A stretch of DNA of 64,000 nt, taken from NCBI GenBank assembly GCA_017416915.1, contig JAFQAN010000023.1:62001-126000 (forward strand), given 5' to 3'. The notes beneath the pieces are model-generated. The model saw nothing but the letters and a program-made list of their open reading frames with translations, was not told the DNA's origin and did not search any database. Shown piece by piece: positions 24,687-63,133 of the stretch; position 1 is the first letter of the stretch; every line of letters starts with the position of its first letter. The translations under genes were made by a program, and so were the position numbers. Source of the stretch: Alistipes sp. (GTDB taxonomy: Bacteria > Bacteroidota > Bacteroidia > Bacteroidales > Rikenellaceae).

Positions 24687-24811
24687 AGCTTGGCGTCAGA
24701 GTGGTGCATCGCAAAAGAGAGCGCCACGGGATTGCACTAAAACGTACAGCCCGTGGCGCTTTACCTTTTGGGATGCGCCGCTGATGCGCCGCTATCACCA
24801 CGCTCCCAAGC
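24687..24811 (-). repeat. 3'-end palindrome, copy C of the gcvH locus
   Basis: An imperfect palindrome of about 125 bp. The inner stem GCGCCACGGG pairs with CCCGTGGCGC around a loop containing ACTAAAACGTAC. Compared with the copies at 33.2 and 63.0 kb, the inner stem differs on both arms in a compensating way while the loop is conserved. The right end (TATCACCACG) carries a short insertion relative to the other copies. Confidence 0.85.
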
Positions 24812-24817
24812 GAGACG

Positions 24818-24949
24818 AATTTGTTGTTAGAAGGGCGTCAGATACAACGCTCGGCGAATTTCGAGCCGATGGGCTGTACTAAGGCGTACTGCCCATTGGC
24901 GAGATAATTCGTTAGCGGCAGTAGATGACCCCTTATCACAACACAATTT
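24818..24949 (-). repeat. 3'-end palindrome, copy B of the gcvH locus
   Basis: An imperfect palindrome of about 132 bp, with ends AATTTGTTGTTAG and TTATCACAACACAATTT and apex ATGGGCTGTAC-TAAGGC-GTACTGCCCAT. It shares its last 5 bp with the first 5 bp of copy A. A left-half copy of this subtype recurs at 41762. Confidence 0.85.
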
Positions 24950-25075
24950 GTTGTTAGAAGCCGTAAGATGTGGTGCCAAGTCGAAGTTTGGCTGGATATG
25001 GGGGTGTACTTGGCGTACATCCCCATTCAGACGAACAAGCTTGGTGCCGCAGATTGCGGCTTATCACAACAAATT
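24945..25075 (-). repeat. 3'-end palindrome, copy A, overlapping the gcvH stop
   Basis: An imperfect palindrome of about 131 bp, ends AATTTGTTGTTAG / TTATCACAACAAATT and apex GGGGGTGTAC-TTGGC-GTACATCCCC. Its outermost bases overlap the gcvH stop codon (25074-25076). Its inner 80 bp is nearly identical to the yidD copy at 53.9 kb, but the outer stem is different and still pairs. Confidence 0.88.
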
Positions 25076-25454
25076 AGCCGATTAAAGCCTCATAACCTGC
25101 CGCATCCAACAAGTCATCAAGCTCTGCGGGGTTAGCCATCTTAATCTTAACCAACCAGCCCTCGCCATAGGGATCCTTGTTTACGAGCGACGAGTCAGCC
25201 TCAACAGCCTCGTTGAACTCGATAACCTCACCACCTACGGGTGTAAATGCGTCTGATACAGTCTTAACAGCCTCGATAGAGCCGAATACCTCGTTAGCTT
25301 CGAGAGTCTCACCTACGGTGGGAACATCAACGAAAACGATATCGCCAAGCTCTGACTGAGCATAGTCGGTAATGCCGATAACGGCAACATCACCCTCTAC
25401 ACGAACCCACTCGTGGTCCTGAGAGTACTTCAAATTAGCAGGTACATTAGCCAT
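25074..25454 (-). CDS. gcvH: Glycine cleavage system H protein
   Basis: The 126-residue product has the lipoyl-lysine motif with Lys64 in [14 protein letters not shown], and the fold signatures [10 protein letters not shown] and [12 protein letters not shown]. It carries the methylamine intermediate between the P, T and L proteins. gcvP and gcvT are not in the window. Lipoate attachment would need a separate ligase; birA nearby is for biotin. It is monocistronic, with its own promoter and three palindromes at its 3' end in place of a normal terminator. Confidence 0.96.
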
Positions 25455-25564
25455 AATTCTAATAGTATTAGATTGTTATTATTGTTAATTATTCTGTTCG
25501 TACGTCTATCCCATTTTAGCTCTGTGCCACCCTTCTCAACAGGGTTAAGCCACTTTCGCAACTA

Positions 25565-25594
25565 CAAATATACGTTTATTTTCGCTCTTACAAA
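25565..25594 (-). promoter_or_regulatory. Promoter for gcvH
   Basis: Leftward TTTG (25594-25591), 18 bp, then TATATTTG (25572-25565). The leader would be about 105 nt. Confidence 0.65.
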
Positions 25595-25629
25595 AATTTC
25601 GAACAACTTTTTTTCTCTTCGCGCACTCT

Positions 25630-26244
25630 TTATCGGATAAAGTTTGTAGATATACGCTCCTCAGCCTTGGGTGGCTGGGTGCTGTCAGCGGCTATTTTAC
25701 GTAGCATCCACGCCATATTTCGCGCCAACGTGCGCATCGTCTGCATACCCTCCGCATCTTCGCGCGCCTCGCCCTGCGCAGCACCGTGTACGCTGTTCCA
25801 ATACTGCGACGATACGATGGGCATATTGTTGATTGTAAAGTACTTGTTTAGTCTATCGAAGGTTGCCGACGCACCACCACGTCGGCACACTGCCACCGAC
25901 GCTGCGGGCTTATATTGCAGATGGCGACCCGAAGCATAGAAGAGCCTATCGAGCAGGGCGCAGAGCGCTCCGTTAGGTCCAGCATAATATACGGGCGAGC
26001 CTACCACGAGGGCGTCGCACTCCTTGACCTTCGCCTCCAAGATGGTGTATAGCGGGTCGTTCATAGCGCAACGTCCCGTCTGCGCGCAGCTATTGCAGGC
26101 TATACATCCCGAGATAGGGCGTATGCCGATATGGACAATCTCCGCCGCTATGCCCTCCGCTTGCAGGGTTGTGGCAATTTCGTTAAGTGCCTCGTAGGTG
26201 TTGCCCGAGGCGTGGGGGCTTCCGTTGATAAGTAGTACTTTCAT
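25630..26244 (-). CDS. Flavodoxin-like NAD(P)H-dependent FMN reductase family protein
   Basis: From the ATG at 26244 the product is 204 residues and opens with the flavodoxin-like MKVLLINGSPHASGNTYEAL. A cysteine cluster (CIACNSCAQTGRC) lies at about residues 45-57, followed by GSPVYYAGPNGALCALLDRL, which contacts FMN. This is the iron-sulfur flavoprotein/NADPH-dependent reductase superfamily. An upstream-extended reading lacks sense because it overlaps birA. It follows birA by 10 nt. Substrate is unknown. Confidence 0.85.
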   Translation of the reverse strand: MKVLLINGSPHASGNTYEALNEIATTLQAEGIAAEIVHIGIRPISGCIACNSCAQTGRCAMNDPLYTILEAKVKECDALVVGSPVYYAGPNGALCALLDRLFYASGRHLQYKPAASVAVCRRGGASATFDRLNKYFTINNMPIVSSQYWNSVHGAAQGEAREDAEGMQTMRTLARNMAWMLRKIAADSTQPPKAEERISTNFIR

Positions 26245-26254
26245 AGTTCTATCT

Positions 26255-26983
26255 CTATTGTTTATGAGGCAGTTGAAACTCCACCTCCTTAAAGGCATAC
26301 TCACGTATCGTGCCGTCGGCATGCTCTAAGCGTAGCTCGCCCGAGGGACGCACACCGCGTATTATCGCCTCGAAACACTCGCCCGAGGGGTAGGCGTAGG
26401 TGTGTCGTTCGTCAAGATGGTACATCTTAGCTTGGTAGCGTTGCTCGATATAGTCGCTGTTGCCCGCTTCGAGCTGCGCGTATAGCCCTTTAAGGTGTGC
26501 AAGATAGTTATCGAGTAGCTCCTCTCGGTCGAAGGTGCGCCCCGTGAGGCTATACATTGAGGCGGGGTTGGGCAGCGAGCTGTCAAAAGCCCTCTGATTG
26601 ACATTGAGACCTATACCCACAATCGTACGCGAAAGCCTATCACCCGCGAGCGAGTGTTCGATAAGCACCCCTGCGAGCTTGCTATCTGCGGCGTAGAGGT
26701 CGTTGGTCCACTTTATACGGCACTCGATGCCGTAGTCTGCCATACACTCCACCAGCGCGAGGGCTACCACCTCTGAGAGCAGGAACTGCGAAGTGATGGG
26801 CAGGAAGTGTGGATGAAGCACCACCGAGAAGGTGAGGTTCTGCCCCTCGCCGCTCAGCCACGTGTGTCCACGCTGCCCACGACCAGCACTCTGCGTCTCC
26901 GCCCACACCACGTCGAAGTGGTTGAGGGCGTCGCTACGAGCGTCGTCGTTAGTCGATGTAGTAGTGGCTTTATGGTATATCAT
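26255..26983 (-). CDS. birA: Biotin--[acetyl-CoA-carboxylase] ligase, class I
   Basis: From the ATG at 26983 the product is 242 residues: TSTNDDA near the start, the biotinyl-AMP loop GRGQRG at 34-39, KWTNDLY, and KLAGVLIE in the catalytic core, then a C-terminal SH3-like domain. No N-terminal HTH is present, so it is an enzyme only, without repressor function. It attaches biotin to carboxylase carrier proteins. It lies in a divergent pair with the glutaminyl cyclase gene. Confidence 0.93.
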   Translation of the reverse strand: MIYHKATTTSTNDDARSDALNHFDVVWAETQSAGRGQRGHTWLSGEGQNLTFSVVLHPHFLPITSQFLLSEVVALALVECMADYGIECRIKWTNDLYAADSKLAGVLIEHSLAGDRLSRTIVGIGLNVNQRAFDSSLPNPASMYSLTGRTFDREELLDNYLAHLKGLYAQLEAGNSDYIEQRYQAKMYHLDERHTYAYPSGECFEAIIRGVRPSGELRLEHADGTIREYAFKEVEFQLPHKQ

Positions 26984-27008
26984 TGTTAAAACTTTATTAA
27001 ATATTAGC

Positions 27009-27046
27009 CAAAGATACAAAAAATCCTGTAAAAAGGGTTATCTTTG
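27009..27046. promoter_or_regulatory. Divergent promoter region birA / glutaminyl cyclase
   Basis: TATCTTTG faces left at 27016-27009 and right at 27039-27046, only 22 bp apart. The two transcripts would start back-to-back. Neither has a clear TTTG -33 box, so polymerase may compete for the shared 38 bp. Confidence 0.6.
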
Positions 27047-27069
27047 CAAGTGTATATATAAATATTTGT

Positions 27070-27888
27070 ATGAGGACAAGAAAGACGATAACTATATTTG
27101 TGCTGCTCACGCTCTTTACGCTCGGTGCCTGTGGTAGCAAGGGCGGTAGCAAGAGAGCTGATAGCGACACCTCGAATAGTAGCCAGCCCACAAAGCAGTA
27201 TGCCGAGCAGTGGTCGTGGCGCGTAGTGAAGGAGTACCCACACTCGACAAATAGCTACACGCAGGGCTTACAGTTTGTCGATGGCGAGATGTGGGAGGGT
27301 ACAGGACAGCACGGCGAGTCGCACCTGCAACGCATAGACCTCGCCACAGGCAAGGTGGACATTGTGGCATCGTTGCCCGCTAAGGAGTTTGGCGAGGGCA
27401 TACTACTATACAAGGAGCGCATCTATCAACTCACGTGGCTCTCGGAGGTTGCACACGTCTATAACCGTGAGGGCGAGGAGCTTAACACCCTTCATTTCGA
27501 GGGCGAAGGCTGGGGACTAACCTCCGATGGCGAGACGATATATATGTCGGACGGCACATCGACACTTCGTTGCGTAAATCCCGACACGTTTAAGCCCGAG
27601 AGGTCGATATTCGTAACGCTCGACGGACATCCGCTCGACCTACTCAACGAGTTGGAGTGGATAGAGGGCAAGATATGGGCAAACGTCTATATGACCTCGT
27701 CGATAGTTGTCATCAACCCCACCACGGGCGTTGTAGAGGCATTCCTCGACCTCCCCGAGTTGGACAATAGCAAGCATAACCCCAAGGCGGACGTGCTGAA
27801 CGGCATCGCCTACGATAAGGCTACGGGACGCATATACGTTACGGGAAAAAATTGGGATAAGCTCTACGAAATTGAAGTAATAAAGTAA
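27070..27888 (+). CDS. Glutaminyl-peptide cyclotransferase (plant-type fold), lipoprotein
   Basis: The 272-residue product has an SPII signal (lipobox LGAC, Cys about 21). A beta-propeller of the glutamine cyclotransferase family follows: YPHSTNSYTQGLQF, GTGQHGESHLQRIDL, FEGEGWGLTSDGETIYMSDG and LNGIAYDKATGRIYVTGKNW. It would convert N-terminal glutamine to pyroglutamate on exported proteins, which in Bacteroidetes fits the mature N-termini of many periplasmic proteins. It is followed by a homocysteine methyltransferase gene 11 nt downstream. Confidence 0.9.
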   Translation: MRTRKTITIFVLLTLFTLGACGSKGGSKRADSDTSNSSQPTKQYAEQWSWRVVKEYPHSTNSYTQGLQFVDGEMWEGTGQHGESHLQRIDLATGKVDIVASLPAKEFGEGILLYKERIYQLTWLSEVAHVYNREGEELNTLHFEGEGWGLTSDGETIYMSDGTSTLRCVNPDTFKPERSIFVTLDGHPLDLLNELEWIEGKIWANVYMTSSIVVINPTTGVVEAFLDLPELDNSKHNPKADVLNGIAYDKATGRIYVTGKNWDKLYEIEVIK

Positions 27889-27899
27889 TACAGCATACA

Positions 27900-28829
27900 A
27901 TGAGCATACGGCAGAAAATCAACGATATACTACAACGCCACATCGTCGTAGCGGATGCTGCGGTGGGTACAGCTCTCATAGGCACACGCCGCGACCTCTG
28001 CGCCGACGAGCTGTCTATAACCGACCACGAGCGCGTCGTAGCCCTCCACGAGGCGGCGATACGTGCTGGTGCGCGCATAATCACCACCAATACCTTCCTC
28101 TCGGATAGCCTCTCGTTAGTTGCCAGCGGCGCTACACACCCCACCGAGGAGGTTGTTGCCAAGTCGGTAGCTGCCGCTAAGCAGGCACGCGAGAGTGTTG
28201 CAAAGGAGGCTACGGCAGCTGGCAAGACCCCAAAGGAGGTATTCATTGCTGGCTCGATAGGTCCGTCGGTGCGCAACATTTCGCTTGCCACGGACATCTC
28301 AGAAGAGGCTCTTAGAGAGTCGTACCGCGCACTTATCAAGGCACTTAGCGCTGAGGGCGTCGATATTTTCCTTATCGAGAGTATCACCGACATACGCAAT
28401 GCGGAGATTGCCGCCGAGGAGTGCCGCGCCATAGCCCCTGAGACGCCGATAATCTTTTCGGCAGTACTCTCGAAGATTGGCGGGCTGCTACTGTCGGGAC
28501 GCACCATCGAGAAGTATGTCGAGGATGTCGAGAAGTTCGACCCCATAGCCATAGGCTTCAACTGCTCGACAGGTGTGCAGAGCGTCGTGGATAACCTCTC
28601 GCTGTTGGTGCGATATACCAAGCGCCACACCTACTGCTCGCCCTCGGCGGGCATCCCCAACGCTAAGGGAGAGTACCCCGAGAGCGCAAAGCGCCATACC
28701 GAGGCACTGCGTAAAGCTGCCGAGAGCGGTCTGCTGAGCATCGTCGGCGGCTGCTGCGGCACCACCGAGAAGCATACGCTCGGCGTAGCGCAGATGGCGC
28801 GCCACTACAAACCACGTAAAACCGAGTAA
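27900..28829 (+). CDS. Homocysteine S-methyltransferase family protein (stand-alone domain)
   Basis: The 309-residue barrel has the zinc ligands of the Hcy-binding domain: a Cys in GFNCSTG and the paired Cys in GGCCGTT near the C-terminus. TTNTF and GPSVRNISLATDI fit the N-terminal Hcy domain of MetH. No folate or cobalamin domain is attached. It may transfer a methyl group from S-methylmethionine or S-adenosylmethionine to homocysteine, or be one part of a split methionine synthase. Neighbours do not decide this. Confidence 0.87.
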   Translation: MSIRQKINDILQRHIVVADAAVGTALIGTRRDLCADELSITDHERVVALHEAAIRAGARIITTNTFLSDSLSLVASGATHPTEEVVAKSVAAAKQARESVAKEATAAGKTPKEVFIAGSIGPSVRNISLATDISEEALRESYRALIKALSAEGVDIFLIESITDIRNAEIAAEECRAIAPETPIIFSAVLSKIGGLLLSGRTIEKYVEDVEKFDPIAIGFNCSTGVQSVVDNLSLLVRYTKRHTYCSPSAGIPNAKGEYPESAKRHTEALRKAAESGLLSIVGGCCGTTEKHTLGVAQMARHYKPRKTE

Positions 28830-28830
28830 G

Positions 28831-29937
28831 ATGAATAGCAAAGAGTTCCGTCGCCACCTACACCGCAACCCCGAACTCTCGTTCAAGGAGTTCGACACAC
28901 AGCGTTTCATCCTCGACGCACTACGTGCCGAGGGCATAGAGTGTCGCGCTATCGCCACCACAGGCGTCATAGCGAAAATCGAGGGCAACCGCGGCAACCT
29001 CAGCCGCGCCGTGGTGCTACGCGCCGACATCGACGCGCTGCCCGTCAAGGAGCTTAACGACATAGATTTTAAGTCTGAGCGAGAGGGTGTTATGCACGCC
29101 TGTGGCCACGACATCCACGCCGCCGTACTCTTTGGGGTGCTACAACAGCTCAACCGTGAGCGTAACTTTGAGGGGACACTATTCGGCATCTTCCAGCCAG
29201 GCGAGGAGCTAAACCCAGGAGGTGCTGTCAAGGTGCTTGCAGAAGAGCCGTTCGAGGGCTATACCGTTGCTGCGGTCATCGGCGAACACGTCGATTCGCA
29301 CTTGGAGATTGGCGAGGTGGGCATCTGCCCAGGACGCTTTATGGCCGCAAACGACGAGTTGCGCCTCTACGTTACGGGACGTGGTGGACACGCTGCACGT
29401 CGCGCGGAGATTAACGACACGGTAACGGCGATGTGCGAGATGGTGGTGATGACCACCTCGCTGAATGCCCATGAGAGCGTGGTATCTATCGGGCGTGTCA
29501 TAGCCGACGGCGCCACCAACGTCATCCCCGACAAGGTAACTGCCGAGGGTACGATGCGCACCTTCGATGCGGAGCGTAGGGAGCATATACATACACTACT
29601 TAGAAACAATGCCAAGAGTATCGCCGAGCGCTACGGCGTCGAGGTGGAGGTAGATATTAACCACGGCTACCCCTGCGTCGTAAACGACGTGATGTTGTCG
29701 TACGAGGCGATGATTGTCGCACAGGACGAGGGCATCGCCGTACGCCAGATTGAGCCACTCGCCACCGCCGAAGACTTCGGATACTACACAGAGCGATACC
29801 CGTCGCTGTTCTATCGTCTCGGCGTAGGCAGCGCAGCAGGTGGCGCACACACCGCCACATTCCTCCCCGACGAGGAGGCTATCGCCGTGGGCGAGAGGAT
29901 GATGCGCCGCTTGGCACTACACATTTTGAATAAATAG
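28831..29937 (+). CDS. M20 family metallopeptidase/amidohydrolase
   Basis: The 368-residue product has the M20 metal-site motifs RADIDALPV, HACGHDIHA, FQPGEE and EHVD, plus a dimerisation insert (GRGGHAARRAEINDT). It resembles N-acyl-amino-acid amidohydrolases (hippurate hydrolase/IAA-amino acid hydrolase type). It starts 1 nt after the previous stop and ends 3 nt before RNase R, so these genes are translationally packed. The precise acyl substrate is unknown. Confidence 0.9.
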   Translation: MNSKEFRRHLHRNPELSFKEFDTQRFILDALRAEGIECRAIATTGVIAKIEGNRGNLSRAVVLRADIDALPVKELNDIDFKSEREGVMHACGHDIHAAVLFGVLQQLNRERNFEGTLFGIFQPGEELNPGGAVKVLAEEPFEGYTVAAVIGEHVDSHLEIGEVGICPGRFMAANDELRLYVTGRGGHAARRAEINDTVTAMCEMVVMTTSLNAHESVVSIGRVIADGATNVIPDKVTAEGTMRTFDAERREHIHTLLRNNAKSIAERYGVEVEVDINHGYPCVVNDVMLSYEAMIVAQDEGIAVRQIEPLATAEDFGYYTERYPSLFYRLGVGSAAGGAHTATFLPDEEAIAVGERMMRRLALHILNK

Positions 29938-29940
29938 AGA

Positions 29941-32094
29941 ATGGCAAAACGAGATAAACATAGGGGCAGAAGCCGCGACGAGAGGGTATCGTTCATCGTC
30001 GATATGTTTCGGGAGTTTCCCGACAATAAGTTTTCACTCAAACACCTCGCAGCCGCTTCGGGAGGTGCTGACCGCGATGGTCGCAATATGACCTTCGCCA
30101 TCGTGCGGCAGCTTATCGAGGAGGGCTACGTCGAGGAGGTGTCGCGCAGCAAATACCGTCTGTCGCGCCACGCCCTGCCATCGTACGAGGGCCGCGTAGC
30201 AAGCGTTACGCCTGGGGCGCTGTATGTTCACGTCGAGGCGTTGGAGAGCGACGTGTTTGTGTCGCGCCGCAATGCTTGTGGTGCGTTGGAGGATGACAAG
30301 GTGCGCATCGTCGTAGCACGACGCTCACGCGATGGCGAGTTGGAGGGTACCATAACCGAGGTTATGGAGCGTAGCCGCCGACCCTACGTTGGCACGGTGG
30401 AGCTATCGGCAAACGCTATCTTCGTGACGCCCGATAGCCGACGCATCGGCATCGACATATACCTGCCACGCAAGAAGTATCCCGATATTGAGGAGGGCGA
30501 CAAGGTGTCGGTACGTGTAGTTGAGTGGGCGGAGGGCGAACGTCTGCCCGAGGGCGAGCTTATAGAGCGTCTGGGCAAGGCGGGAGAGAACGATACCGAG
30601 ATGCACGCCATACTCGCCGAGTTCGACCTACCCTACCACTTCGAGAGGGATGTTCTACGCGCCGCAGAGCGTATCGAGGGTACCATAAGCAAGGAGGAGA
30701 TAGCTCGTCGCCGCGATATGCGCGACCGCGTAACATTTACCATAGACCCCGCCGATGCCAAAGATTTCGACGACGCACTGTCGCTGACACCCCTGCAAGA
30801 GGGCGTCTGGGAGGTGGGCGTACATATCGCCGACGTTACGCACTACGTAACACCTGGCTCTATCATCGACAACGAAGCTGTGGAGCGCGCCACATCGGTA
30901 TATTTAGTCGATCGCACCGTGCCGATGCTCCCCGAGAGGCTTTGCAACGAGCTTTGCTCACTACGTCCGCACGAGGATAAGCTCTGCTTCTCGGCAGTCT
31001 TCATCATCAACGAAAACCTCGACATCCTCGATGAGTGGTTCGGTCGCACGGTGATACACTCCGACCGCCGCTTTGCCTACGAGGAGGCGCAGGAGGTCAT
31101 CGAGAGCGGCAAGGGCGACTACGCCACCGAGATAACGACACTCAACCGCCTCGCACAGGGGCTGCGCAAGGAGCGCTTCAAGCACGGCGCGATAGCCTTC
31201 GCCCGCGACGAGGTGCGCTTCAAGCTCGACGAGAAGGGACGCCCCATAGGCGTATATACCAAGGTACAGAAGGAGGCAAATATGCTTATCGAGGAGTTTA
31301 TGTTGTTGGCAAACAGGCGTGTAGCCGAGTTCTGCGCACACCGCATCGTAAACGGCCGCAAAGTGCCTCGCCCGATGGTCTATCGTGTTCACGACGAGCC
31401 GAGTGAGGATAAGCTCGGACGTTTCCGCGACTTTGCGCTGCGCTTTGGACACTACTTCAAGGCGACGAAGGGTCGCGCCGTGGCTAAGGAGATGAACAAG
31501 CTGCTTGGCAGTATCGCTGGCAAGGCTGAGGCAAATGCCATCACCACACTCGCCGTGCGCAGTATGGCGAAGGCGACATACACCACCGATAACATCGGAC
31601 ACTACGGCTTAGCATTCCCCTACTATACGCACTTCACCTCGCCCATACGTCGCTACCCCGATATGATGGTACACCGCCTGCTTGCGGCATACCTCGCGGG
31701 CGATAAGCAGAGCGATAAGAGGCAGTTGGAGGCGCTGGCAGTACACTCCTCAGAGCGAGAGATTGTCGCCTCGGAGGCGGAGCGCGCAAGCATCAAGTAT
31801 AAGATGGCTGAGTTTATGAAGGAGCATATCGGCGAGGAGTTTGACGGCGTAGTCTCGGGAATGACCGAGTGGGGCGTATATGTCGAATTGAACGATACAC
31901 ACGTCGAGGGTATGGCATTCCTGCGCGACATCGACGACGAGGACTACTACTACTTCGACGAGGCGCGATACGAGGTCGTAGGTCGCTCATCGGGCGTACG
32001 CCTGACGCTCGGCTCGGAGGTGAGAATACGTGTTAAGAGCGTCGATCTCAACCGCCGCACACTCGATTTCAAGCTACTAATAAACGAAAGATAA
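29941..32094 (+). CDS. rnr: Ribonuclease R
   Basis: The 717-residue product has an N-terminal winged-helix-like region, cold-shock domains, the RNB catalytic domain (DPADAKDFDDALSL at about 270-283, supplying the magnesium-binding aspartates) and a C-terminal S1 domain (GVVSGMTEWGVYVELNDTHVEGM). It degrades structured RNA 3' to 5' processively. The order CSD-RNB-S1 and the length fit RNase R/VacB rather than RNase II. Next is mqnC, 6 nt on. Confidence 0.95.
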   Translation: MAKRDKHRGRSRDERVSFIVDMFREFPDNKFSLKHLAAASGGADRDGRNMTFAIVRQLIEEGYVEEVSRSKYRLSRHALPSYEGRVASVTPGALYVHVEALESDVFVSRRNACGALEDDKVRIVVARRSRDGELEGTITEVMERSRRPYVGTVELSANAIFVTPDSRRIGIDIYLPRKKYPDIEEGDKVSVRVVEWAEGERLPEGELIERLGKAGENDTEMHAILAEFDLPYHFERDVLRAAERIEGTISKEEIARRRDMRDRVTFTIDPADAKDFDDALSLTPLQEGVWEVGVHIADVTHYVTPGSIIDNEAVERATSVYLVDRTVPMLPERLCNELCSLRPHEDKLCFSAVFIINENLDILDEWFGRTVIHSDRRFAYEEAQEVIESGKGDYATEITTLNRLAQGLRKERFKHGAIAFARDEVRFKLDEKGRPIGVYTKVQKEANMLIEEFMLLANRRVAEFCAHRIVNGRKVPRPMVYRVHDEPSEDKLGRFRDFALRFGHYFKATKGRAVAKEMNKLLGSIAGKAEANAITTLAVRSMAKATYTTDNIGHYGLAFPYYTHFTSPIRRYPDMMVHRLLAAYLAGDKQSDKRQLEALAVHSSEREIVASEAERASIKYKMAEFMKEHIGEEFDGVVSGMTEWGVYVELNDTHVEGMAFLRDIDDEDYYYFDEARYEVVGRSSGVRLTLGSEVRIRVKSVDLNRRTLDFKLLINER

Positions 32095-32100
32095 GATACT

Positions 32101-33195: not shown

Positions 33196-33236
33196 TACGC
33201 TGCACTACGCAGCGGGACGACGTGGCAGCTTGGCGC

Positions 33237-33342
33237 AGTGTTCTATCGCAAAAGAGAGTGCCGTGGGATAGTACTAAAACGTACAGCCCACGGCACTCTA
33301 CTTTTTGGGATAGGGCGCTGATGCGCCGCTATCACGCCAAGC
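33237..33342 (-). repeat. 3'-end palindrome at the tpiA end
   Basis: A palindrome of about 106 bp, ends AGCTTGGCGCAGTG / TATCACGCCAAGC. The inner 13-bp perfect stem AGAGTGCCGTGGG (33255-33267) pairs with 33287-33299 around a loop with GTACTAAAACGTAC. It ends 6 nt beyond the tpiA stop. The inner 58 bp matches the copy at 63.0 kb. Confidence 0.88.
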
Positions 33343-33348
33343 AATTTT

Positions 33349-34098: not shown

Positions 34099-34117
34099 AC
34101 TTCTTATATCTTAAATG

Positions 34118-35944: not shown

Positions 35945-36245
35945 AGGGGAGAGTGTGGACTGGGAATGACTGGGAACGGCTGGGAACGGCTGAGAAAGAC
36001 TGAGAATGACTGGGAATGACTGGGAATGACTGAGAACACCTGTGTTTTTCAAGGGGTCTCGCAGTCCCGTTGTCCCGAGGTCTCGCAGTCTCGTGGTCTC
36101 GCGGTCCCGCAGTCCCGAGGTCTCGTTGTCTTGTCGTCTCGTTGGCGCGCCTCTCAGCCATTCTCAGTCTTTCTCAGCCATTCTCAGTCTTTCTCAGCAA
36201 ATCGCGCGCCACCCAGTCAATCGCGCGCCCCTCAGCCGTTCCTAC
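35945..36245 (+). repeat. Repeat cassette in opposite orientation, no palindrome attached
   Basis: An array of 10-bp units (GACTGGGAAT, GGCTGGGAAC, GACTGAGAAT) runs from 35956 to 36036. It is followed by CACCTGTGTTTTTC and an array of 8-bp units (GTCTCGCA, GTCCCGAG) to about 36145. GGCGCGCC follows, and then the 10-bp array again in inverted orientation (CAGCCATTCT, CAGTCTTTCT). The whole is a large inverted repeat around the 8-bp array. Confidence 0.8.
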
Positions 36246-36254
36246 AGCAACCCG

Positions 36255-41725: not shown

Positions 41726-41822
41726 GCGGTGGCAGCTGTGAGGCTGGTCGCAGTCGCCACGATTTTGTTGTCAGAAGGCATTAGATACAACGCTCGGCGA
41801 ATTTCGAGTCGATGGGCTGTAC
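41726..41822 (-). repeat. Partial palindrome arms at the TonB receptor end
   Basis: 41726-41760 repeats the stretch GTGGCAGCTGTGAGGCTGGT seen at 41850-41869. 41762-41822 is a left-arm-only copy of the gcvH copy-B subtype (ATTTTGTTGTCAGAAGG ... GATGGGCTGTAC). No matching right arm follows either. Confidence 0.75.
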
Positions 41823-41833
41823 TCATTACCTTC

Positions 41834-41962
41834 ATTTTGTTGTCAGAATGGTGGCAGCTGTGAGGCTGGTCGCAGTCGTTGAAAGCGGAGCATACTTTGA
41901 CGTATGTGAGCATTTCAACGGCAAGCCAGACGCCGCAGATGCCCCATTATCACAACAAAATT
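41834..41962 (-). repeat. 3'-end palindrome overlapping the TonB receptor stop
   Basis: About 129 bp, ends ATTTTGTTGTCAG / TTATCACAACAAAAT. The middle stem is GTTGAAA ... TTTCAAC and the apex is CATAC-TTTGAC-GTATG. The terminal bases overlap the receptor stop codon (41961-41963). The inner sequence differs from all other copies, yet the fold is kept. Confidence 0.85.
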
Positions 41963-53069: not shown

Positions 53070-53073
53070 GTTG

Positions 53074-53540: not shown

Positions 53541-53725
53541 TGTAGAATATAGCTAAAATGCTAATCAGTATGTGTCAATAACTTATAAATGCATCATAGG
53601 CATATTACATTTATCACTAATGTTTAGACAAAGATACGCATTTTTTTTGAAAGAATAACTATTTTGTGAGTTTGTAGAAAAAAGCGCCACAAACAATAGG
53701 ATGATAGTCCGCACTTAGGGATGAG
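53541..53725. other. AT-rich spacer
   Basis: No ORF. It holds one leftward promoter-like TATCTTTG (53636-53629) without a convincing -33 box. Confidence 0.5.
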
Positions 53726-53727
53726 GC

Positions 53728-53821
53728 AATTACGGGACGACGGGACTGCGAGACCCGCTAAAAACACAGGCATTCTCAGTCGTTCCCAATCATTCTCAGC
53801 TGTGCGTGGCCGTGCGTGGCC
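53728..53821 (-). repeat. Repeat cassette (copy at the yidD end)
   Basis: 8-bp units (GGGACGAC, GGGACTGC, GAGACCCG), then AAAAACACAGGCATTCTCAG, CGTTCCCAAT, CATTCTCAG and GTGCGTGGCC twice, leading directly into the palindrome. Confidence 0.8.
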
Positions 53822-53949
53822 GCTTGGTGTGAGAGTGGTGCAGATGTGGTGCCAAGTCGAAGTTTGGCTGGATGGGGGTGTACTTGCGCGTACATCCCCA
53901 TTCAGACGAACGAGCTTGGTGCCGCAGATGCGCCGCTATCACGCCAAGC
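53822..53949 (-). repeat. 3'-end palindrome at the yidD end
   Basis: About 128 bp, ends GCTTGGTGTGAG / CTATCACGCCAAGC, and apex GGGGGTGTAC-TTGCGC-GTACATCCCC. It ends 11 nt from the yidD stop, which is the end of a roughly ten-gene operon. Confidence 0.88.
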
Positions 53950-53960
53950 TCAACAATAGA

Positions 53961-54221: not shown

Positions 54222-54552
54222 TTTCGATAGTCTTATATGGTAGGACCTCCTTAGACGAGTAGATGAACGCCACATCCATAGAGATACCACGCTCCGCAAC
54301 ACGCTCCTGCAACGACTGCTTATGCAGACGGTACGCCTCCTTGGTGCGGCGGCGTAGCACGTTGCGCCTATTTGCGCGCTTGTGGTATCGCTTTGGTACC
54401 GAACACAACACCTCAACAGATGGGGCGCCCTGCTCGACATAGACGATATATCGGAATGGGTAGGCAAAGCCCGCATCGCCATCGGTAAAGAGGCGACGGA
54501 TGGCCGTGAGCGAACGTAGGCGCTCGGCAGAGGGCAACCCGTTGGGCTTCAT
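54178..54552 (-). CDS. rnpA: Ribonuclease P protein component
   Basis: The 124-residue basic protein has the RNR motif region [20 protein letters not shown] and KEAYRL. It binds RNase P RNA for 5' tRNA maturation. rpmH, its usual neighbour, is not present; instead hemD precedes it by 2 nt and yidD overlaps its end. Confidence 0.94.
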
Positions 54553-54554
54553 CG

Positions 54555-55412: not shown

Positions 55413-55551
55413 TGCTTTCTATGTTTTATTCTATTATTCGCTCACAACGCAGAGGCTATGCCACTTACATCACGACAAGCAACACGCAAGCCCTCATGCA
55501 ACCTACACACACTTCGCTACCACCTACTAATCAACTACTTACGCCGCATCT

Positions 55552-57664: not shown

Positions 57665-57675
57665 CCTTTCAGGGC

Positions 57676-59379
57676 TTAGTGCATTTCGAGATTCTGCTCG
57701 CGTAGTATGCGGCGGTACTCCTCGTCGTTGAGTAGCAACTCGACTGCCTGCTCTATGGTGGGGTCGGTTACTGCGGCGTGCTCCACAGCACCCTCGTTAT
57801 AGGCGTAGCGCAGCAGCAGCTCCGAGGTGAGCATCTGCTCAATCTCGTTGCGGTAGCTCTCCATATTCGACATCTTATCGTCCTTGACCAGCGAGCGGAA
57901 GCGGTCGAGGGTCTCGCCCAACGCCTCATCATAGCGGTCGTTCTCAACAGCCTTCTCCAAGCTACGTAGCGCAATACGTGTCTCCGACTCGTAGGGTACA
58001 TCCTTCTGCTCGATGAAGCGGACGAAGTCGTCATACTCCTCGTCGGTAAGGGCGAAACTACGCACGTCAATCATGCGGTCGTGGTTACGGCGCATATACC
58101 CATCAGCCCAATCCTCCATAAAGCCCAAGGCGTAGAGCGTGAAGGCGAAGCGGCTGACATACTGAGGCTCAATCTTAACATCTGGAACGATGCCACCACC
58201 ATCATATACCTTGCGACCGCCACGCGTCCTATACTCCTTAATCAACGAGTCGGGGACCGACTGTACGCTGCCGTCGCCATTACGCTTCGAGTAGTTGAGT
58301 GCCTGTATGCAGCGTCCCGAGGGTATGTAGTACTTCGCAGTAGTGTATTTGAGGTAGGTGTTATAGCCCAAGTGGCGCGTACCCTGCACCAAACCCTTGC
58401 CATAGGTGCGCTGACCCATAACCACGGCACGGTCTTTATCCTGCAATGCGCCCGCCAAAATCTCGGCTGCCGACGCCGACGAGCCATTTACAAGCACCAC
58501 GATAGGTATATTCTCGGCAAGTGGAGCATGAGACGTGTCGAAGTGGCGTAGCGACGACGAGTCGCGACCCATAATCGACACCACCCTCTCGCCACGCGGC
58601 ACAAAGAGCGACACTATATCTACCGCCTCCTGCATCACGCCACCACCATTGGAGCGGTAGTCGAGGACGATACCTCGAAGCGAGTCCTGCTGCATAAGCG
58701 TTTCGAGGGCGCGACGCACCTCACCATAGCTGCCATCTATAAAGTCGTTGTGGCATATATAGCCGATGCCATCACGCAAGATGCCCGCGTAAGGCACGCT
58801 GGGGATAGATATACGGCGACGCACAAGGCGCAACGTATCGAGCGAAGCATCCAAGTTACGCTCCACGACAACCTCAACCTCTGTCTCAGGGTCGCCTTTG
58901 AGGCGGCTGCTGATGTCCGAGACATCTACACCACGCATACTCTCGCCGTCAATAGCGATAATCTTATCGCCAATGCGCACACCCGCCTCATCTGCGGGCG
59001 AGCCTTTGTAGGGCTGCGCAAAGATGACGTAGTCGCCCTTCTTGCGTATAAGCGAGCCTACACCAGCATACTTGCCCGTGGTGTGCATCTCGAACGACTT
59101 CATAGACTCCTCCGAGAGGTACTCCGAATAGGGGTCGGTGGCATTAACCATCCCCAGAGCCGCCTTGTCGAGCAGCGCATCTGCCGACACCTCATCGACA
59201 TAGCCCGTCTCAAACTCCCGCATTATGTTCGCCAATATCTCGGTGGCACGACCAAGCTCGAAATCTGCCGCCACACGCCTCTGCTGCGCACTGAGGGGCA
59301 GAGCGACCGACAGCAGCACGACCGCAACTGCCACAAAGCGACACGAGGCAGTGTATATGTTTGATTTTCTACTCTTCAT
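57676..59379 (-). CDS. S41 family C-terminal processing peptidase
   Basis: The 567-residue product has a signal peptide, a PDZ domain (about 95-175) and the S41 catalytic region with NGSSASAAEILAGAL (Ser nucleophile) and GQRTYGKGLVQ (Lys). A 120-residue C-terminal helical extension follows. It cleaves periplasmic proteins or tails, like CtpA/Prc. It overlaps the preceding membrane-protein gene by 11 nt and is followed by the histidine kinase 11 nt on. Confidence 0.92.
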   Translation of the reverse strand: MKSRKSNIYTASCRFVAVAVVLLSVALPLSAQQRRVAADFELGRATEILANIMREFETGYVDEVSADALLDKAALGMVNATDPYSEYLSEESMKSFEMHTTGKYAGVGSLIRKKGDYVIFAQPYKGSPADEAGVRIGDKIIAIDGESMRGVDVSDISSRLKGDPETEVEVVVERNLDASLDTLRLVRRRISIPSVPYAGILRDGIGYICHNDFIDGSYGEVRRALETLMQQDSLRGIVLDYRSNGGGVMQEAVDIVSLFVPRGERVVSIMGRDSSSLRHFDTSHAPLAENIPIVVLVNGSSASAAEILAGALQDKDRAVVMGQRTYGKGLVQGTRHLGYNTYLKYTTAKYYIPSGRCIQALNYSKRNGDGSVQSVPDSLIKEYRTRGGRKVYDGGGIVPDVKIEPQYVSRFAFTLYALGFMEDWADGYMRRNHDRMIDVRSFALTDEEYDDFVRFIEQKDVPYESETRIALRSLEKAVENDRYDEALGETLDRFRSLVKDDKMSNMESYRNEIEQMLTSELLLRYAYNEGAVEHAAVTDPTIEQAVELLLNDEEYRRILREQNLEMH

Positions 59380-59854
59380 AACGACTATTGTGTTTGTAGG
59401 CTTTCAGCTGGTAGGCAACACGCGCCACCGTACGGCGCAAACCTACAAGCTCGATGCCATTCGCCGTGGTATGCACCTCGATAGTATCCTCGCCCATAAG
59501 TAGCAATCGGCGCAACGGACTCTCGGCTCGATAGAGCTTGACGCCATCACGCTCGCCCACCGCCTTAAAGCCATAGAGCTGCATGGCGTTGAATAGGCGC
59601 ACATCATCCTTCTCGGCATCAAAACCCTCGATATGGCTACGCATAAAGCCAAAGAGAGGATAGAGTGCCGCCAAGACGACAAAGGCGATAACCATCCATA
59701 CGCCCATCGACGTTTGCAGTTGTGCCTCAATCTGTCGCCACGGATGCACCGACAATTCCGACATATCTGCAAGATAGACTATCCATACCAAGCCTACATA
59801 CAGAACGCACAGAAGCACCAAATATTTTAGCGAACGAACAATGTGTTTTTTCAT
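59369..59854 (-). CDS. Two-helix membrane protein, unknown function
   Basis: The 161-residue product has hydrophobic helices at about 8-28 and 51-71, then a soluble C-terminal domain of about 85 residues (GFKAVGERDGVKLYRAESPL) with no known motif. Family not recognised. It sits between ispH and the S41 protease in the same operon and overlaps the latter by 11 nt. Confidence 0.75.
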   Translation of the reverse strand: MKKHIVRSLKYLVLLCVLYVGLVWIVYLADMSELSVHPWRQIEAQLQTSMGVWMVIAFVVLAALYPLFGFMRSHIEGFDAEKDDVRLFNAMQLYGFKAVGERDGVKLYRAESPLRRLLLMGEDTIEVHTTANGIELVGLRRTVARVAYQLKAYKHNSRYEE

Positions 59855-59900
59855 ATCCTCGAAATATTAAGGGTGTTATACTCTATTTTGGGAGGCTATC

Positions 59901-60773
59901 TTACTGCTTATCGTTATGAATAGCCGTAATAGCCTCTGCGACCTCCTCCATAAGCCAGCGCGGCGTAGATGTGGCACCACAGATGCCCACACTCTCCACA
60001 TCCTCGAACCACGAAGCATCCAACTCCGATGCCTCCTCGATATTATATGCGCGGGGGTTGGCACGGCGACATACATCGTAGAGTACACGACCATTCGACG
60101 ACTTACGACCACATACAAATACCACTACATCGACACTCTCGGCAAACTCCATAAGCCCCTTCTCGCGTCCCGCCACACGCCTACATATCGTGTCGTCGAG
60201 CGTAACACGCTCCTCACCCGCACGACGCACTATCTCCTCGCCCAAGCGGTTGAAGAGGTCGATACTCTGCGTCGTCTGCGAGAGAAAGTAGATGGGACGC
60301 GTGAAGTCGATAAGCGAGAGGTCTGCCTCGCTCTCTATAACCGTAACGTCGTCATCGACCTGTCCCGTGAGACCTACCACCTCGGCGTGTCCTCGCTTGC
60401 CTAAGAGTACAACGCTGCCGCCCACCTTCTGCATCGCCATATAGGCGTCGCGCACCTTGCGTTGCAGGCGCGCCACAACAGGACACGTAGCGTCGATAAC
60501 CGAGATGCCTAACTCCTTAGCACGGCTGTATGTACGCGGCGGCTCGCCGTGAGCGCGTATGAGCATCGTGCGTCCCGCCAACTGCGGCATATCGTCGTGC
60601 GTAACGGTGCGTAGCCCCAAGCGCTCCAAGCGCTGCACCTCGACACGGTTGTGGACAATATCGCCCAACGACGACACCTCTCCAACACGTTGCAGTGCCG
60701 CCTCCGCCTCGCCTATGGCGCGTACTACACCGAAGCAAAAGCCCGAATTATCATCTATCGTAACTCGCATCAT
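59901..60773 (-). CDS. ispH: 4-hydroxy-3-methylbut-2-enyl diphosphate reductase
   Basis: The 290-residue product has the three iron-sulfur cysteines Cys13 (SGFCFGV), Cys97 (DATCPVV) and Cys197 (DDTICRR), plus GHAEVVGLTGQ and GATSTPRWLMEEV. It makes IPP and DMAPP in the last step of the MEP pathway, feeding the polyprenyl synthase at 4.9 kb. It overlaps cmk by one base. Confidence 0.96.
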   Translation of the reverse strand: MMRVTIDDNSGFCFGVVRAIGEAEAALQRVGEVSSLGDIVHNRVEVQRLERLGLRTVTHDDMPQLAGRTMLIRAHGEPPRTYSRAKELGISVIDATCPVVARLQRKVRDAYMAMQKVGGSVVLLGKRGHAEVVGLTGQVDDDVTVIESEADLSLIDFTRPIYFLSQTTQSIDLFNRLGEEIVRRAGEERVTLDDTICRRVAGREKGLMEFAESVDVVVFVCGRKSSNGRVLYDVCRRANPRAYNIEEASELDASWFEDVESVGICGATSTPRWLMEEVAEAITAIHNDKQ

Positions 60774-61468
60774 TAACGGCTTATTACCTCGTTATAACGC
60801 TCCATAAACCACGCCATCTGCTCCTCGACACTCATCTGCGAGTTATCCAAGACAATGGCATCATCGGCCTTACGCAACGGCGATATGGCACGTGTCATAT
60901 CCGCCTCATCGCGCGACACTACATTCTCGTAAATCTGCTCCAAGGTTACCTTATCGCCCTTGGCGGTAAGCTCCTTAAAGCGGCGCTCGGCACGTACCAT
61001 CGGGTCGGCGGTCATATATATCTTCAACTCAGCCTCGGGGAAGACCACCGTACCAATATCGCGGCCATCCATCACCACGCCACGCTTCAAGCCCATCTGC
61101 TGCTGCATAGCTACCAACTTACGGCGTACCGCCGCGATAGAGCTGACGGCACTCACACAGTTGCTGACCTCGATGGTGCGTATCTTGCCCTCGACCAGGT
61201 CGCCATTGACATATATGTCGCTGGCGCCGCGCTGCGGATTGAATCGAAAATCTATGTTTATATGGTCGAGCATCGCCTCAACGGCTGCCTCATCAACCAT
61301 ACCCGAGCAAATTGCACCATGCTCCAAAGCGTAGAGCGTTACGGCACGATACATCGCCCCCGTGTCGATAAAGATATAACCTAAGCGGGCTGCTATCGCC
61401 TTGGCGAACGTACTCTTACCACACGACGAATGACCGTCGATAGCGATTATAATTCTCTTGTTGTCCAT
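60773..61468 (-). CDS. cmk: Cytidylate kinase
   Basis: The 231-residue product has the P-loop DGHSSCGKST (11-20), FIDTGAMYRAVTLYAL, the CMP-binding RDIGTVVFPEA and a lid region with DEADMTR. It phosphorylates CMP and dCMP. It overlaps ispH by one base; cmk-ispH adjacency is common in Bacteroidetes. Confidence 0.95.
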   Translation of the reverse strand: MDNKRIIIAIDGHSSCGKSTFAKAIAARLGYIFIDTGAMYRAVTLYALEHGAICSGMVDEAAVEAMLDHINIDFRFNPQRGASDIYVNGDLVEGKIRTIEVSNCVSAVSSIAAVRRKLVAMQQQMGLKRGVVMDGRDIGTVVFPEAELKIYMTADPMVRAERRFKELTAKGDKVTLEQIYENVVSRDEADMTRAISPLRKADDAIVLDNSQMSVEEQMAWFMERYNEVISR

Positions 61469-61475
61469 TATGTCG

Positions 61476-62279
61476 TTAGATTAATACCGAGAGGAGTGTA
61501 TAGAGTCCCAAAACTCCAATGACAACCCCCGCAACGTGGTTTATCGTGAGCATATGTCGCGGACGGAAGCCACGGCGGAAGAGGTTGATAAGGAATGTGA
61601 GCGCCGCCCACCATATCACAGCACCAAGCAGGAAGCCCGCGATGATAAGTGCGTTACGCACCATATTGCTAATCTTCGATGGTGTAGTATGCACTACTGT
61701 AACCATCTTCGTATCTGGCTCTTCGACCGTCTGGGGGGCATCCTCACCATAGTTAAGCAGCGCCTCATCGCCACCACTAATCTCCGTCTTCTCGGCGGGA
61801 GGTACCACAGCTTCGGTCTGCACCTCGGTAACGACATCGCCCGATAGGTCGATGTTGAACATAGTGAAGAATGCCAAGATATAGGGGATGATAACTACGA
61901 AGTTGGCGAGTGTAAAGCCAAACATCGAGACGAAGTCCTGCCAAAGGTTGGTCTTGCCAGCGCGATTTTTGCGAATCTGCGGCACAGGGTTTTTGAAGAA
62001 GATAAAGACGCCGACGATGACTACAAACACTCCACCACATATCTGTATGACGGTATTGTACTCGTCGATATAGCTCTTCAACAGGGCATATACTGTAAAA
62101 GAGAGTATGGCGAGGATGGTATCGGCACACGCCACACCCAAACCCGACATCAACCCCGATATATGACCCTTACTCAGAGTGCGTTGTATGCACAGCACCG
62201 CCACAGGACCCACGGTCACCGACGAGGCCAAACCTACGCATATTCCTCCGAAGAGTATCTGTAAAATCTCTACAAACAT
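61476..62279 (-). CDS. LysE family transporter with an acidic insert
   Basis: The 267-residue product has the LysE N-terminus (GGICVGLASSVTVGPVAVLC), with helices near 5-28, 42-68, 76-96, 122-141, 208-232 and 245-265. Unlike common LysE proteins, an insert of about 65 residues (142-206) rich in Glu and Thr lies between helices 4 and 5. Members export amino acids or metabolites. It appears to head the long leftward operon; a TATCTTTG element (62351-62344) is 65 nt upstream. Confidence 0.82.
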   Translation of the reverse strand: MFVEILQILFGGICVGLASSVTVGPVAVLCIQRTLSKGHISGLMSGLGVACADTILAILSFTVYALLKSYIDEYNTVIQICGGVFVVIVGVFIFFKNPVPQIRKNRAGKTNLWQDFVSMFGFTLANFVVIIPYILAFFTMFNIDLSGDVVTEVQTEAVVPPAEKTEISGGDEALLNYGEDAPQTVEEPDTKMVTVVHTTPSKISNMVRNALIIAGFLLGAVIWWAALTFLINLFRRGFRPRHMLTINHVAGVVIGVLGLYTLLSVLI

Positions 62280-62343
62280 CGTTTTACTATTATGTCATTC
62301 GCAACGCTCAAAACAACATCAGCGGCACACGACATACTCGGTG

Positions 62344-62351
62344 CAAAGATA
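62344..62351 (-). promoter_or_regulatory. -7 element for the lysE-like/cmk/ispH operon
   Basis: TATCTTTG read leftward; no clear -33 box is seen. Confidence 0.5.
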
Positions 62352-62392
62352 CAATCTTTTTGGCAGAAAATTACTATGTCCGTTGCGATTAT

Positions 62393-62423
62393 TTTGCCAT
62401 ACACAATATTTTGTGTAACTTTA
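62393..62423 (+). promoter_or_regulatory. Promoter for the DUF3467 gene
   Basis: TTTG (62393-62396), 19 bp, then TAACTTTA (62416-62423), one mismatch from consensus; leader about 28 nt. Confidence 0.65.
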
Positions 62424-62457
62424 CGCTATAATTTGAAAACTAATAAAATTTTTAGCT

Positions 62458-62760
62458 ATGAACGAGGTTAAGAAACCAGGTATAGAGATACAACTCGACG
62501 AGCAAGTTGCACAGGGCAACTACTGCAATTTGGCAATTATTGCACACTCCTCATCGGAGTTTATCATCGACTTCGCCACGATGCTTCCAGGCTTACCTAA
62601 GGCACGTGTCAAGAGCCGTGTGGTACTTACCCCCGAGCATGCAAAGCGACTGCTTATGTCGTTGCAGGAGAATATCACGCGCTACGAGAGCGCCATTGGC
62701 AAGATTACGATTCCCTCGAAGCAGATTATCGACCCCTTCGGCTCGAAAGGTCAGGCATAG
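62458..62760 (+). CDS. DUF3467 protein
   Basis: The 100-residue product has EIQLDEQVAQGNYCNLAIIA, SSEFIIDFATMLPGLPKARV, SRVVLTPEHAKRLLMSLQ and ENITRYESAIGKI. This is a compact alpha/beta unit typical of DUF3467, a family widespread in Bacteroidetes with no known role. No neighbour in the same direction follows. It converges on the gene at 63135 with a repeat cassette between. Confidence 0.85.
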   Translation: MNEVKKPGIEIQLDEQVAQGNYCNLAIIAHSSSEFIIDFATMLPGLPKARVKSRVVLTPEHAKRLLMSLQENITRYESAIGKITIPSKQIIDPFGSKGQA

Positions 62761-62839
62761 TCTCCAATACTAAACCACTTAGAAATTAGAGAGTTATCGC
62801 GGGTGCAAGACGCACACCGCAGATGAGTTGTATATAAGC

Positions 62840-63002
62840 GGCTGGGAAGGGCTGCGTGGCGCGCGATTGGCTGAGAACGCCTGGGAATGACTGGGAGGCG
62901 CGCCAACGAGACTGCGGGACTGCGAGACTACGGGACTACTGAAAAACCCAGGCGTTCTCAGGCGTTCTCGGGCATTCTCAGTCGTGCGTGGCTGTGCGTG
63001 GC
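62840..63002 (-). repeat. Repeat cassette (copy at 62.9 kb)
   Basis: 10-bp units (GGCTGAGAAC, GCCTGGGAAT, GACTGGGAGG), GCGCGCC, then 8-bp units (GAGACTGC, GGGACTGC, GAGACTAC, GGGACTAC). TGAAAAACCCAGGCG, TTCTCAGGC and similar units, and GTGCGTGGC twice lead into the palindrome. The 10-bp units occur in both orientations around the 8-bp array. Confidence 0.82.
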
Positions 63003-63133
63003 AGCTTGGCGTCAGAGTGGTGCAGATGTGTTCTATCGCAAAAGAGAGTGCCGTGGGATAGTACTAAAACGTACAGCCCACGGCACTCTACTTTTTGGGA
63101 TAGGACGCAGATGCGTCGCTATCACGACAAGCT
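63003..63133 (-). repeat. 3'-end palindrome at the 63.1 kb gene
   Basis: About 131 bp, ends AGCTTGGCGTCAGAG / CTATCACGACAAGCT. The inner 13-bp stem (63055-63067 with 63087-63099) and loop are identical to the tpiA copy. It ends 1 nt before the stop codon of the leftward gene. Confidence 0.9.

What the first reader, a model, noticed from the sequence alone, without database searches (positions are those of the whole stretch)
24687..63133. Family of about 105-132-bp palindromes with compensating stem changes
Seven full copies (24687, 24818, 24945, 33237, 41834, 53822, 63003) and partial ones (2077, 41726/41762) share one design. The outer stem is either TTGTTGT/ACAACAA or GCTTGGCGT/ACGCCAAGC. 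An asymmetric internal loop has YAGA or similar on one side and TATCAC on the other. A long middle stem follows, with an apex in which GTAC pairs with GTAC across a short A-rich loop. Stem bases differ between copies on both arms together: GTGCCGTGGG/CCCACGGCAC against GCGCCACGGG/CCCGTGGCGC. Pairing is thus maintained although sequence is not, as in structural RNA or a protein-bound cruciform. I know of no named family that matches.
Basis: partly seen in the sequence, partly recalled or inferred. Interest (0 to 1): 0.88.

Follow-up and report, generated by a model that had tools for sequence, protein, structure and literature searches.

The report
Mobile hairpins behind stop codons
A gut bacterium's genome holds well over a hundred copies of a 130-base DNA hairpin whose two arms change together, nearly all pointing the same way along each stretch of chromosome and mostly sitting just after a gene's stop codon; it likely spreads as a small mobile element, predicted to move as single-stranded DNA, and the same hairpin design occurs in two distant bacterial phyla.

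Summary
All seven copies fold as described. The genome gives 141 exact-pattern matches (about 138 distinct), and a model built from it finds the same architecture in Desulfobacterota and Phascolarctobacterium. Covariation is strong (27 of 36 pairs change on both sides). On one strand G·U outnumbers A·C about 15:1, on the other it does not, so one single strand is the selected fold.

New facts: 101 of 130 array-end Alistipes-type copies end within 15 nt of a facing gene's stop codon (random points about 6%); 48 of 48 distinct copies on six contigs of three species lie on the C-rich strand; close relatives have 141 versus 3 matches; orthologous gene ends occur with and without the element; apex loops differ between copies whose arms are identical.

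Best reading: a non-autonomous mobile hairpin that works like REP/REPIN elements. No GTAG foot was seen and no Y1 transposase was detected in the genome, so I file it as a new variant, not a member. The mover is unknown. The strand lock is absent in Desulfobacterota, where the hairpin sits in longer palindromes. An RNA function is not excluded.

The parts
24687..24804 (+). hairpin element, distal copy of a three-copy array behind gcvH; 3' outer arm decayed
   Evidence: fold; R1 E 3.7e-15
24818..24944 (+). hairpin element, middle copy of the array
   Evidence: fold; R1 E 3.6e-17
24945..25075 (+). hairpin element, copy next to gcvH; its 3' end meets the gcvH stop codon
   Evidence: fold; R1 E 3e-18; gcvH end
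33219..33343 (+). hairpin element, 6 nt before the stop codon of the facing triosephosphate isomerase gene
   Evidence: R1 E 3.4e-18; gene
41762..41823 (+). partial element, 5' half up to the apex
   Evidence: sequence read
41834..41961 (+). hairpin element with variant apex (ATAC...GTAT), abutting the stop of a facing TonB-linked outer-membrane protein gene
   Evidence: R1 E 4.3e-12; gene
53821..53950 (+). hairpin element
   Evidence: R1 E 1.5e-22, (in the training set)
63003..63133 (+). hairpin element abutting the stop of a facing gene
   Evidence: R1 E 2.9e-31, (training set)
2069..2123 (+). decayed partial element followed by a repeated 13-nt 3' end
   Evidence: by eye; R1 E 0.43
25074..25454 (-). 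gcvH, the gene behind whose stop codon the array lies
   Evidence: NCBIfam; translation

Best explanation
The palindromes are copies of one dispersed hairpin element of about 130 nt, kept by selection for folding on one strand, which likely spreads as a non-autonomous mobile element and is predicted to move as single-stranded DNA, probably at the replication fork, into the 3' ends of genes. Shown by calls: the common architecture (outer stem, GTNAGA/TATCAC loop, 9-bp stem, GA/GA loop, variable rod, GTACT-N3-4-CGTAC apex), covariation, one-strand wobble pairing, patchy copy number within one genus, orthologous gene ends with and without the element, position at stop codons, orientation tied to GC skew in three Alistipes-type species, and the same design in two other phyla. 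Inferred: that the moving form is the single + strand, that it joins the strand made opposite the lagging-strand template (if the G-rich strand is the leading strand), that it does so between stop codon and terminator, and that it needs an enzyme supplied in trans. Untested: which enzyme.
For: 141 matches in G000 against 3 in G008, whose gcvH region is about 87% identical, and 24 of 37 same-genus genomes without any. Six gene ends compared with G008: G008 shows no element; four keep the stop position, in two the element's own end supplies an earlier stop. Near-identical cores at different places: 34 type-4 pairs identical over 80 nt, 24 of them with different loops. One-strand fold: G.U 694 against A.C 45 on +, 170 against 315 on -; + more stable in 91% of 162. 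48 of 48 distinct copies on the C-rich strand, 94 of 97 listed copies on the majority strand of their contig (hand count). Stop codon within 15 nt in 101 of 130, random points 5.7-6.7%. REPs are reported downstream of coding regions and to supply stop codons (passages of PMC3733652), so a hairpin at gene ends fits mobile-element behaviour.
Against: No mover found: no Y1_Tnp and no RVT_1 hit in the own genome, no recurrent neighbouring gene. IS200/IS605 acts on the lagging-strand template (passage of PMC6006769), whereas the folding strand here is the opposite one by GC skew. The lock to skew is absent in Desulfobacterota, 9 of 17, so it is not a property of the hairpin as such. Translation-GTPase genes as leading-strand markers agree mostly in G000 but mostly not in G007. 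At gcvH six of seven close relatives carry an element, which fits long persistence as well as re-insertion. Type-1 copies have a constant loop. No insertion with both flanks aligned was obtained, so target duplication was not properly tested in Alistipes.
Confidence: 0.58

Rival explanations
1. The element is a structured RNA or protein-bound RNA rod, transcribed from the + strand, and the copies are kept for that function.
For: Strong covariation and strand-specific G.U pairing are what a structured RNA shows; the architecture is shared across phyla.
Against: About half of the Alistipes-type copies have no upstream gene on the same strand; a TTTG-N17-22-TANNTTTG promoter upstream in 1 of 175; 24 of 37 same-genus genomes have no copy; no Rfam match.
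Confidence: 0.2
2. It is an ordinary inverted-repeat MITE moved by a double-strand DDE-type transposase of an insertion sequence with the same ends.
For: In Desulfobacterota the hairpin lies inside a dispersed repeat of about 190 bp with long inverted ends; the end motif gives 46, 54 and 28 hits in three genomes, many as pairs about 171 bp apart.
Against: No inward-facing pair at insertion-sequence spacing seen in the listing (G002 and G004 are fragmentary), no shared neighbouring gene, no target duplication seen by eye in 16 aligned copies; a double-strand mechanism does not explain the strand lock or one-strand wobble pairs in Alistipes.
Confidence: 0.12
3. The hairpins are a 3'-end device of the genes they abut, acting in the mRNA as terminator or stabiliser.
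For: They begin at the stop codon of a gene in most Alistipes-type copies, and the site persists at gcvH.
Against: The mRNA carries the strand that folds less well; a T-run follows in gene sense in only 9 of 175 (AAAA control 13); lagging-side genes almost never have one (1 of 370 against 31 of 450); G008 does without.
Confidence: 0.07

Closest known systems
REP / REPIN elements with RAYT (TnpA-REP) Y1 transposases
   Same: Dispersed high-copy hairpins mostly downstream of genes, whose ends can supply stop codons (passages of PMC3733652); thought to be handled as single-stranded DNA by a partner in trans (passages of PMC6006769).
   Different: One rod of about 130 nt with two fixed internal loops and a fixed apex frame instead of a 20-40 bp REP; no GTAG foot in the flank profiles; no Y1_Tnp hit in the own genome; orientation tied to GC skew; same design in three phyla.
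TnpA-REP subclass 2.6 (RAYT group 5) of Bacteroidetes and class 3, with 'atypical secondary structures'
   Same: Atypical structures with copies elsewhere in the genome are reported there (passages of PMC6006769).
   Different: Those structures were not available to compare; a class-3 foot CnGA is reported, while here it is NAGA with variable first base (alignment frame).
MITEs, ERIC and similar 100-190 bp palindromes
   Same: Small, non-coding, dispersed, inverted ends; ERIC is a 127-bp unit (abstract start of PMC2759123).
   Different: Defined by covarying structure rather than sequence; no autonomous partner or target duplication found.
Integron attC sites
   Same: Imperfect hairpin active as one single strand, two stems split by an unpaired region, low sequence conservation (recalled).
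   Different: Copies lie back to back at 125-128 bp without cassettes and the stem bases next to the loop are GT/AC, not the recalled AAC/GTT; no integron integrase was searched for.

Membership tests
REP/REPIN with RAYT | Y1 (HUH) transposase gene of the RAYT kind in the genome | tested here: not met
   PF01797 no hit at E<=1e-3 in G000, 92.8% complete; signature scan of 2.97 Mb of fetched DNA, 0 hits. Other carriers were not searched.
REP/REPIN with RAYT | GTAG (or CGTC) tetranucleotide at the foot of the hairpin | tested here: not met
   5' flank profiles of 96 other and 43 own copies show no such foot.
REP/REPIN with RAYT | dispersed copies at gene 3' ends | tested here: met
   101 of 130 array-end copies within 15 nt of a facing stop.
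IS200/IS605-type single-strand transposition | active strand on the lagging-strand template | tested here: inconclusive
   Folding strand is the C-rich one in 48 of 48, which by the usual skew rule is the other strand; leading-strand marker genes are mixed.
MITE of a DDE insertion sequence | autonomous element with the same ends | tested here: not met
   No inward pair at insertion-sequence spacing in the hits (three genomes, two of them fragmentary); not tested for Alistipes.
MITE of a DDE insertion sequence | target-site duplication | tested here: inconclusive
   None seen by eye in 16 Desulfobacterota copies; in Alistipes only one flank could be aligned.
Retron or group II intron derived element | reverse transcriptase in the genome | tested here: not met
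   RVT_1 no hit in G000, G015, G021, G025, G026.
Known Rfam RNA family | covariance-model match | tested here: not met
   No gathering-level match in the window; weak hits in 7 loci only, one (mir-26, E 0.46) on a hairpin by chance.
Intrinsic terminator | T-run after the hairpin in gene sense | tested here: not met
   TTTT within 25 nt in 9 of 175, AAAA control 13 of 175.
Integron attC site | integron integrase and gene cassettes between sites | not tested
   Integrase not searched; back-to-back spacing without cassettes seen.

The most novel reading that the evidence does not exclude
A genomic parasite that is nothing but one single-stranded hairpin: it propagates without an HUH transposase or reverse transcriptase by being built into the nascent lagging strand at gene ends, its tip re-made at each move, in bacteria that lack the palindrome nuclease SbcCD, and it has crossed phyla as a structure rather than as a sequence.
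Probability: 0.25. Interest if true: 0.88.

Novelty: new variant of a known kind. Interest (0 to 1): 0.7.

Why it matters
If right, it adds a REP-like kind of element defined by structure instead of sequence, seen in Bacteroidota, Desulfobacterota and Negativicutes, with a tie to chromosome polarity that makes the path of insertion testable. It also offers a natural test of how long palindromes persist where SbcD is not detected, and asks which enzyme moves a hairpin where no Y1 transposase is seen. I found no description of it in seven full-text searches of a library that lacks most subscription papers.

Tried and rejected
Tested and dropped: Rfam; a shared neighbouring gene (the ten proteins scanned beside distant copies are housekeeping, regulatory or of unknown function); Y1 transposase; reverse transcriptase; an autonomous element with the Desulfobacterota ends; viral contigs (0; 24 loose-pattern hits, none of which folds as the element and R1 finds 0 of 24; this also serves as a negative control for the distant hits); plasmids (no match). 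The Photobacterium hit L136 is taken as chance (fold -27.6; not found by R1). Polarity of tandem arrays (stop-proximal copy newest): of 10 arrays scored at both ends 7 favour it, 2 tie, 1 is against, and 6 could not be scored; dimers of fixed type order recur, so no claim is made. Strand lock as a property of the hairpin itself: no, Desulfobacterota 9 of 17. The broad search of 394 further Bacteroidota (none) scored only 8 candidates per genome and is weak evidence. A first search for empty sites among all loci was too noisy to use.

Corrections made on checking: one search printed 59 of 59 copies on the C-rich strand, but its pattern counted some copies twice; the recount by 3' end is 48 of 48. 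The loop statistics were recounted by genome coordinate. The promoter and T-run counts (164 rows, some double; TTTT 11, AAAA 43) were recounted one per copy (175). 141 are pattern matches; at least three listed ones are double rows of one copy. My note said 47 for G007; the hand recount is 48.

Rows dropped: one search left out 5 Alistipes-type copies inside an ORF (4 own, 1 other) and copies without a gene on both sides; searches left out 13 copies with under 400 bases of 3' sequence and counted array-end copies only; one search holds only copies with exact GTNAGA, apex and TATCAC motifs, so constancy of those motifs there is by construction.
Full report
What is there. The window lies in a 1.97-Mb metagenome-assembled genome of 42 contigs. 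The seven palindromes fold as one hairpin of about 130 nt: outer stem of 8-10 bp, a 3x3 loop inside GTNAGA/TATCAC, a 9-bp stem, in most types a GA/GA loop, a rod of variable sequence and an apex GTACT-N3-4-CGTAC. At least six rod types combine with several outer stems.

More than chance? The pattern of one half with the apex gives 141 matches in the own genome and 0 when read backwards (about 138 distinct). A covariance model from 27 own copies finds the seven window copies. On 75 copies of other Alistipes-type MAGs aligned by that model 90.9% of cells pair, 27 of 36 pairs change on both sides, and the covariation score is 0.452 against 0.152 +/- 0.006 in shuffles and at most 0.096 in slid controls. 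That alignment was fitted to the model; the earlier MAFFT alignment of own copies, not fitted, gave 22 of 36 pairs with double changes.

Which strand folds? In 162 distinct copies the + strand (5' GTNAGA ... TATCAC 3') has 694 G.U pairs and 45 embedded A.C mismatches; the - strand 170 and 315. The + strand is the more stable in 91% (own 93%, other Alistipes-type 89%, Desulfobacterota/Negativicutes 15 of 15), by 11.7 kcal/mol on average with RNA energies. The + strand lies in an A- and C-rich strand, so composition alone would favour A.C. Hence one single strand, as RNA or DNA, is likely the selected form.

Where does it lie? In Alistipes-type loci the gene beyond the 3' end is on the other strand, its 3' end toward the element, in 99 of 104 copies with genes on both sides; the upstream gene is on either strand about equally. 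The end of TATCAC lies within 15 nt of that gene's stop codon in 30 of 38 own and 71 of 92 other array-end copies (in 10 of these 101 the gene's frame runs into the element and stops in TATCAC itself); random points of the same loci give 6.7% and 5.7%; the 5' side lies as near to a same-strand stop in 1 of 50 and 2 of 95. The outer arm can itself supply TAA or TAG. At six gene ends compared with G008, four keep the stop position and two end a few codons early on a stop supplied by the element. REP ends are reported to do the same (passage of PMC3733652), so this feature alone is not new.

Orientation. Within contigs the strand is nearly uniform: 94 of 97 listed own copies and 46 of 48 in G007 have the majority strand of their contig (hand counts, whose lists are cut). 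On six contigs of three species all 48 distinct copies found lie on the C-rich strand. Third-position and intergenic skews agree except for the intergenic skew of G000:C20 (-0.009 against +0.030 overall) and the minus-strand genes of G007:C40 (+0.005). Genes read from the G-rich strand have an element within 40 nt of their end in 31 of 450 cases, the others in 1 of 370 (p 1.3e-7). If the G-rich strand is the leading strand, as is usual (recalled), the folding strand is the leading template and lagging product. Translation-GTPase genes as markers agree mostly in G000 and mostly not in G007. So the tie to skew is shown; the words leading and lagging are inferred.

Is it mobile? Among 37 same-genus genomes the matches run from 0 (24 genomes) to 141; 24 genomes of other families have none. 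G008, with about 87% DNA identity at gcvH, has 3. Behind gcvH, six of seven close relatives carry what reads as an element starting 0-6 nt after the same stop, with differing rods (three are of one related type, one of them decayed); G008 and the 19 more distant relatives have none by eye. The site has thus been occupied for long while the sequence turned over, or is a hot spot. In the own genome 13 type-4 copies differ by 0.8% in the 80 nt around the apex but by 54% in the loop; of 34 pairs with identical 80 nt, 24 have different loops; type 2, 18 of 21; type 5, 2 of 3; type 3 has no identical pairs. Type 1 is the exception, with one constant loop in 22 copies. Free loops beside constrained arms would give part of this; wholly different loops on identical arms suggest, without proof, that tips are re-made.

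Other phyla. Pattern hits in Syntrophobacterales and other Desulfobacterota and in a Phascolarctobacterium fold into the same architecture with different sequence, and R1 recovers several of them (best E 5e-9 and 4e-8). In Desulfobacterota the hairpin is the core of a palindrome of about 190 bp with long inverted ends. There the strand is not tied to skew (9 of 17 in CP070843.1) and stop codons are not preferred (1 of 19 distant copies within 15 nt, that one in Phascolarctobacterium). The core design is shared; the lock belongs to the Alistipes-type setting.

What moves it? Not found. Y1_Tnp and RVT_1 give no hit in the own genome. RAYT subclass 2.6 of Bacteroidetes is reported to be flanked by atypical structures with copies elsewhere in the genome (passages of PMC6006769), so a RAYT missed in this 92.8% complete assembly, or lost, is the first thing to look for in other carriers. 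A permissive background is visible: SbcD above its cut-off is absent in 24 of 24 same-genus genomes and in 4 of 4 distant bearers, present in 7 of 15 genomes of other families of the order. Non-carriers of the genus lack it too, so it does not explain the patchiness.

Judgement. It works like a REP/REPIN-type passenger hairpin placed at gene ends, but two defining tests of that family were not met (Y1 partner, GTAG foot), so I file it as a new variant. The RNA reading stays open, chiefly because one-strand G.U pairing is what a structured RNA shows. Papers: passages were read of PMC6006769 and PMC3733652; all others were seen as search listings with the start of the abstract.

Noticed in passing
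window 62906-63000, 53740-53820, 24570-24685; loci: In the own species a region of short repeats (TTCTCAG and GGGACTACG units) precedes most copies and seems to be part of the repeated unit; in other species the flank differs.
   Followed up: partly
window 35955-36212 and 62865-62977: Inverted arms made of TTCTCAG units, 31-61 nt, possibly bidirectional terminators.
   Followed up: no
G008 gene ends; flanks of L072, L153, L157: Gene ends of this group carry hairpins built of about 9-bp repeats such as TTTAGGGAG.
   Followed up: no
24 same-genus genomes and G001-G004: No SbcD hit above the family cut-off, although 7 of 15 genomes of other families of the order have one.
   Followed up: partly
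L003, L004, L009, L022, window 2077-2125: The last 13 nt of the element are repeated once beyond its 3' end (CTATCACRCCAAG twice).
   Followed up: no
G000 C2, C5, C7, C10, C11, C17, C19, C20: Tandem dimers recur with the type-4 copy stop-proximal and a type 2, 3, 5 or 6 copy distal.
   Followed up: partly
L066:4583, L115:3273, L146:5223, L147:3644, L154:3376: Loop variant GTCAAA/TTTTCAC or close to it in place of GTCAGA/TATCAC: the G.A mismatch becomes a pair by changes on both sides.
   Followed up: no
L129, L071:6647: Phascolarctobacterium holds further tandem or variant hairpins beside the exact matches.
   Followed up: no
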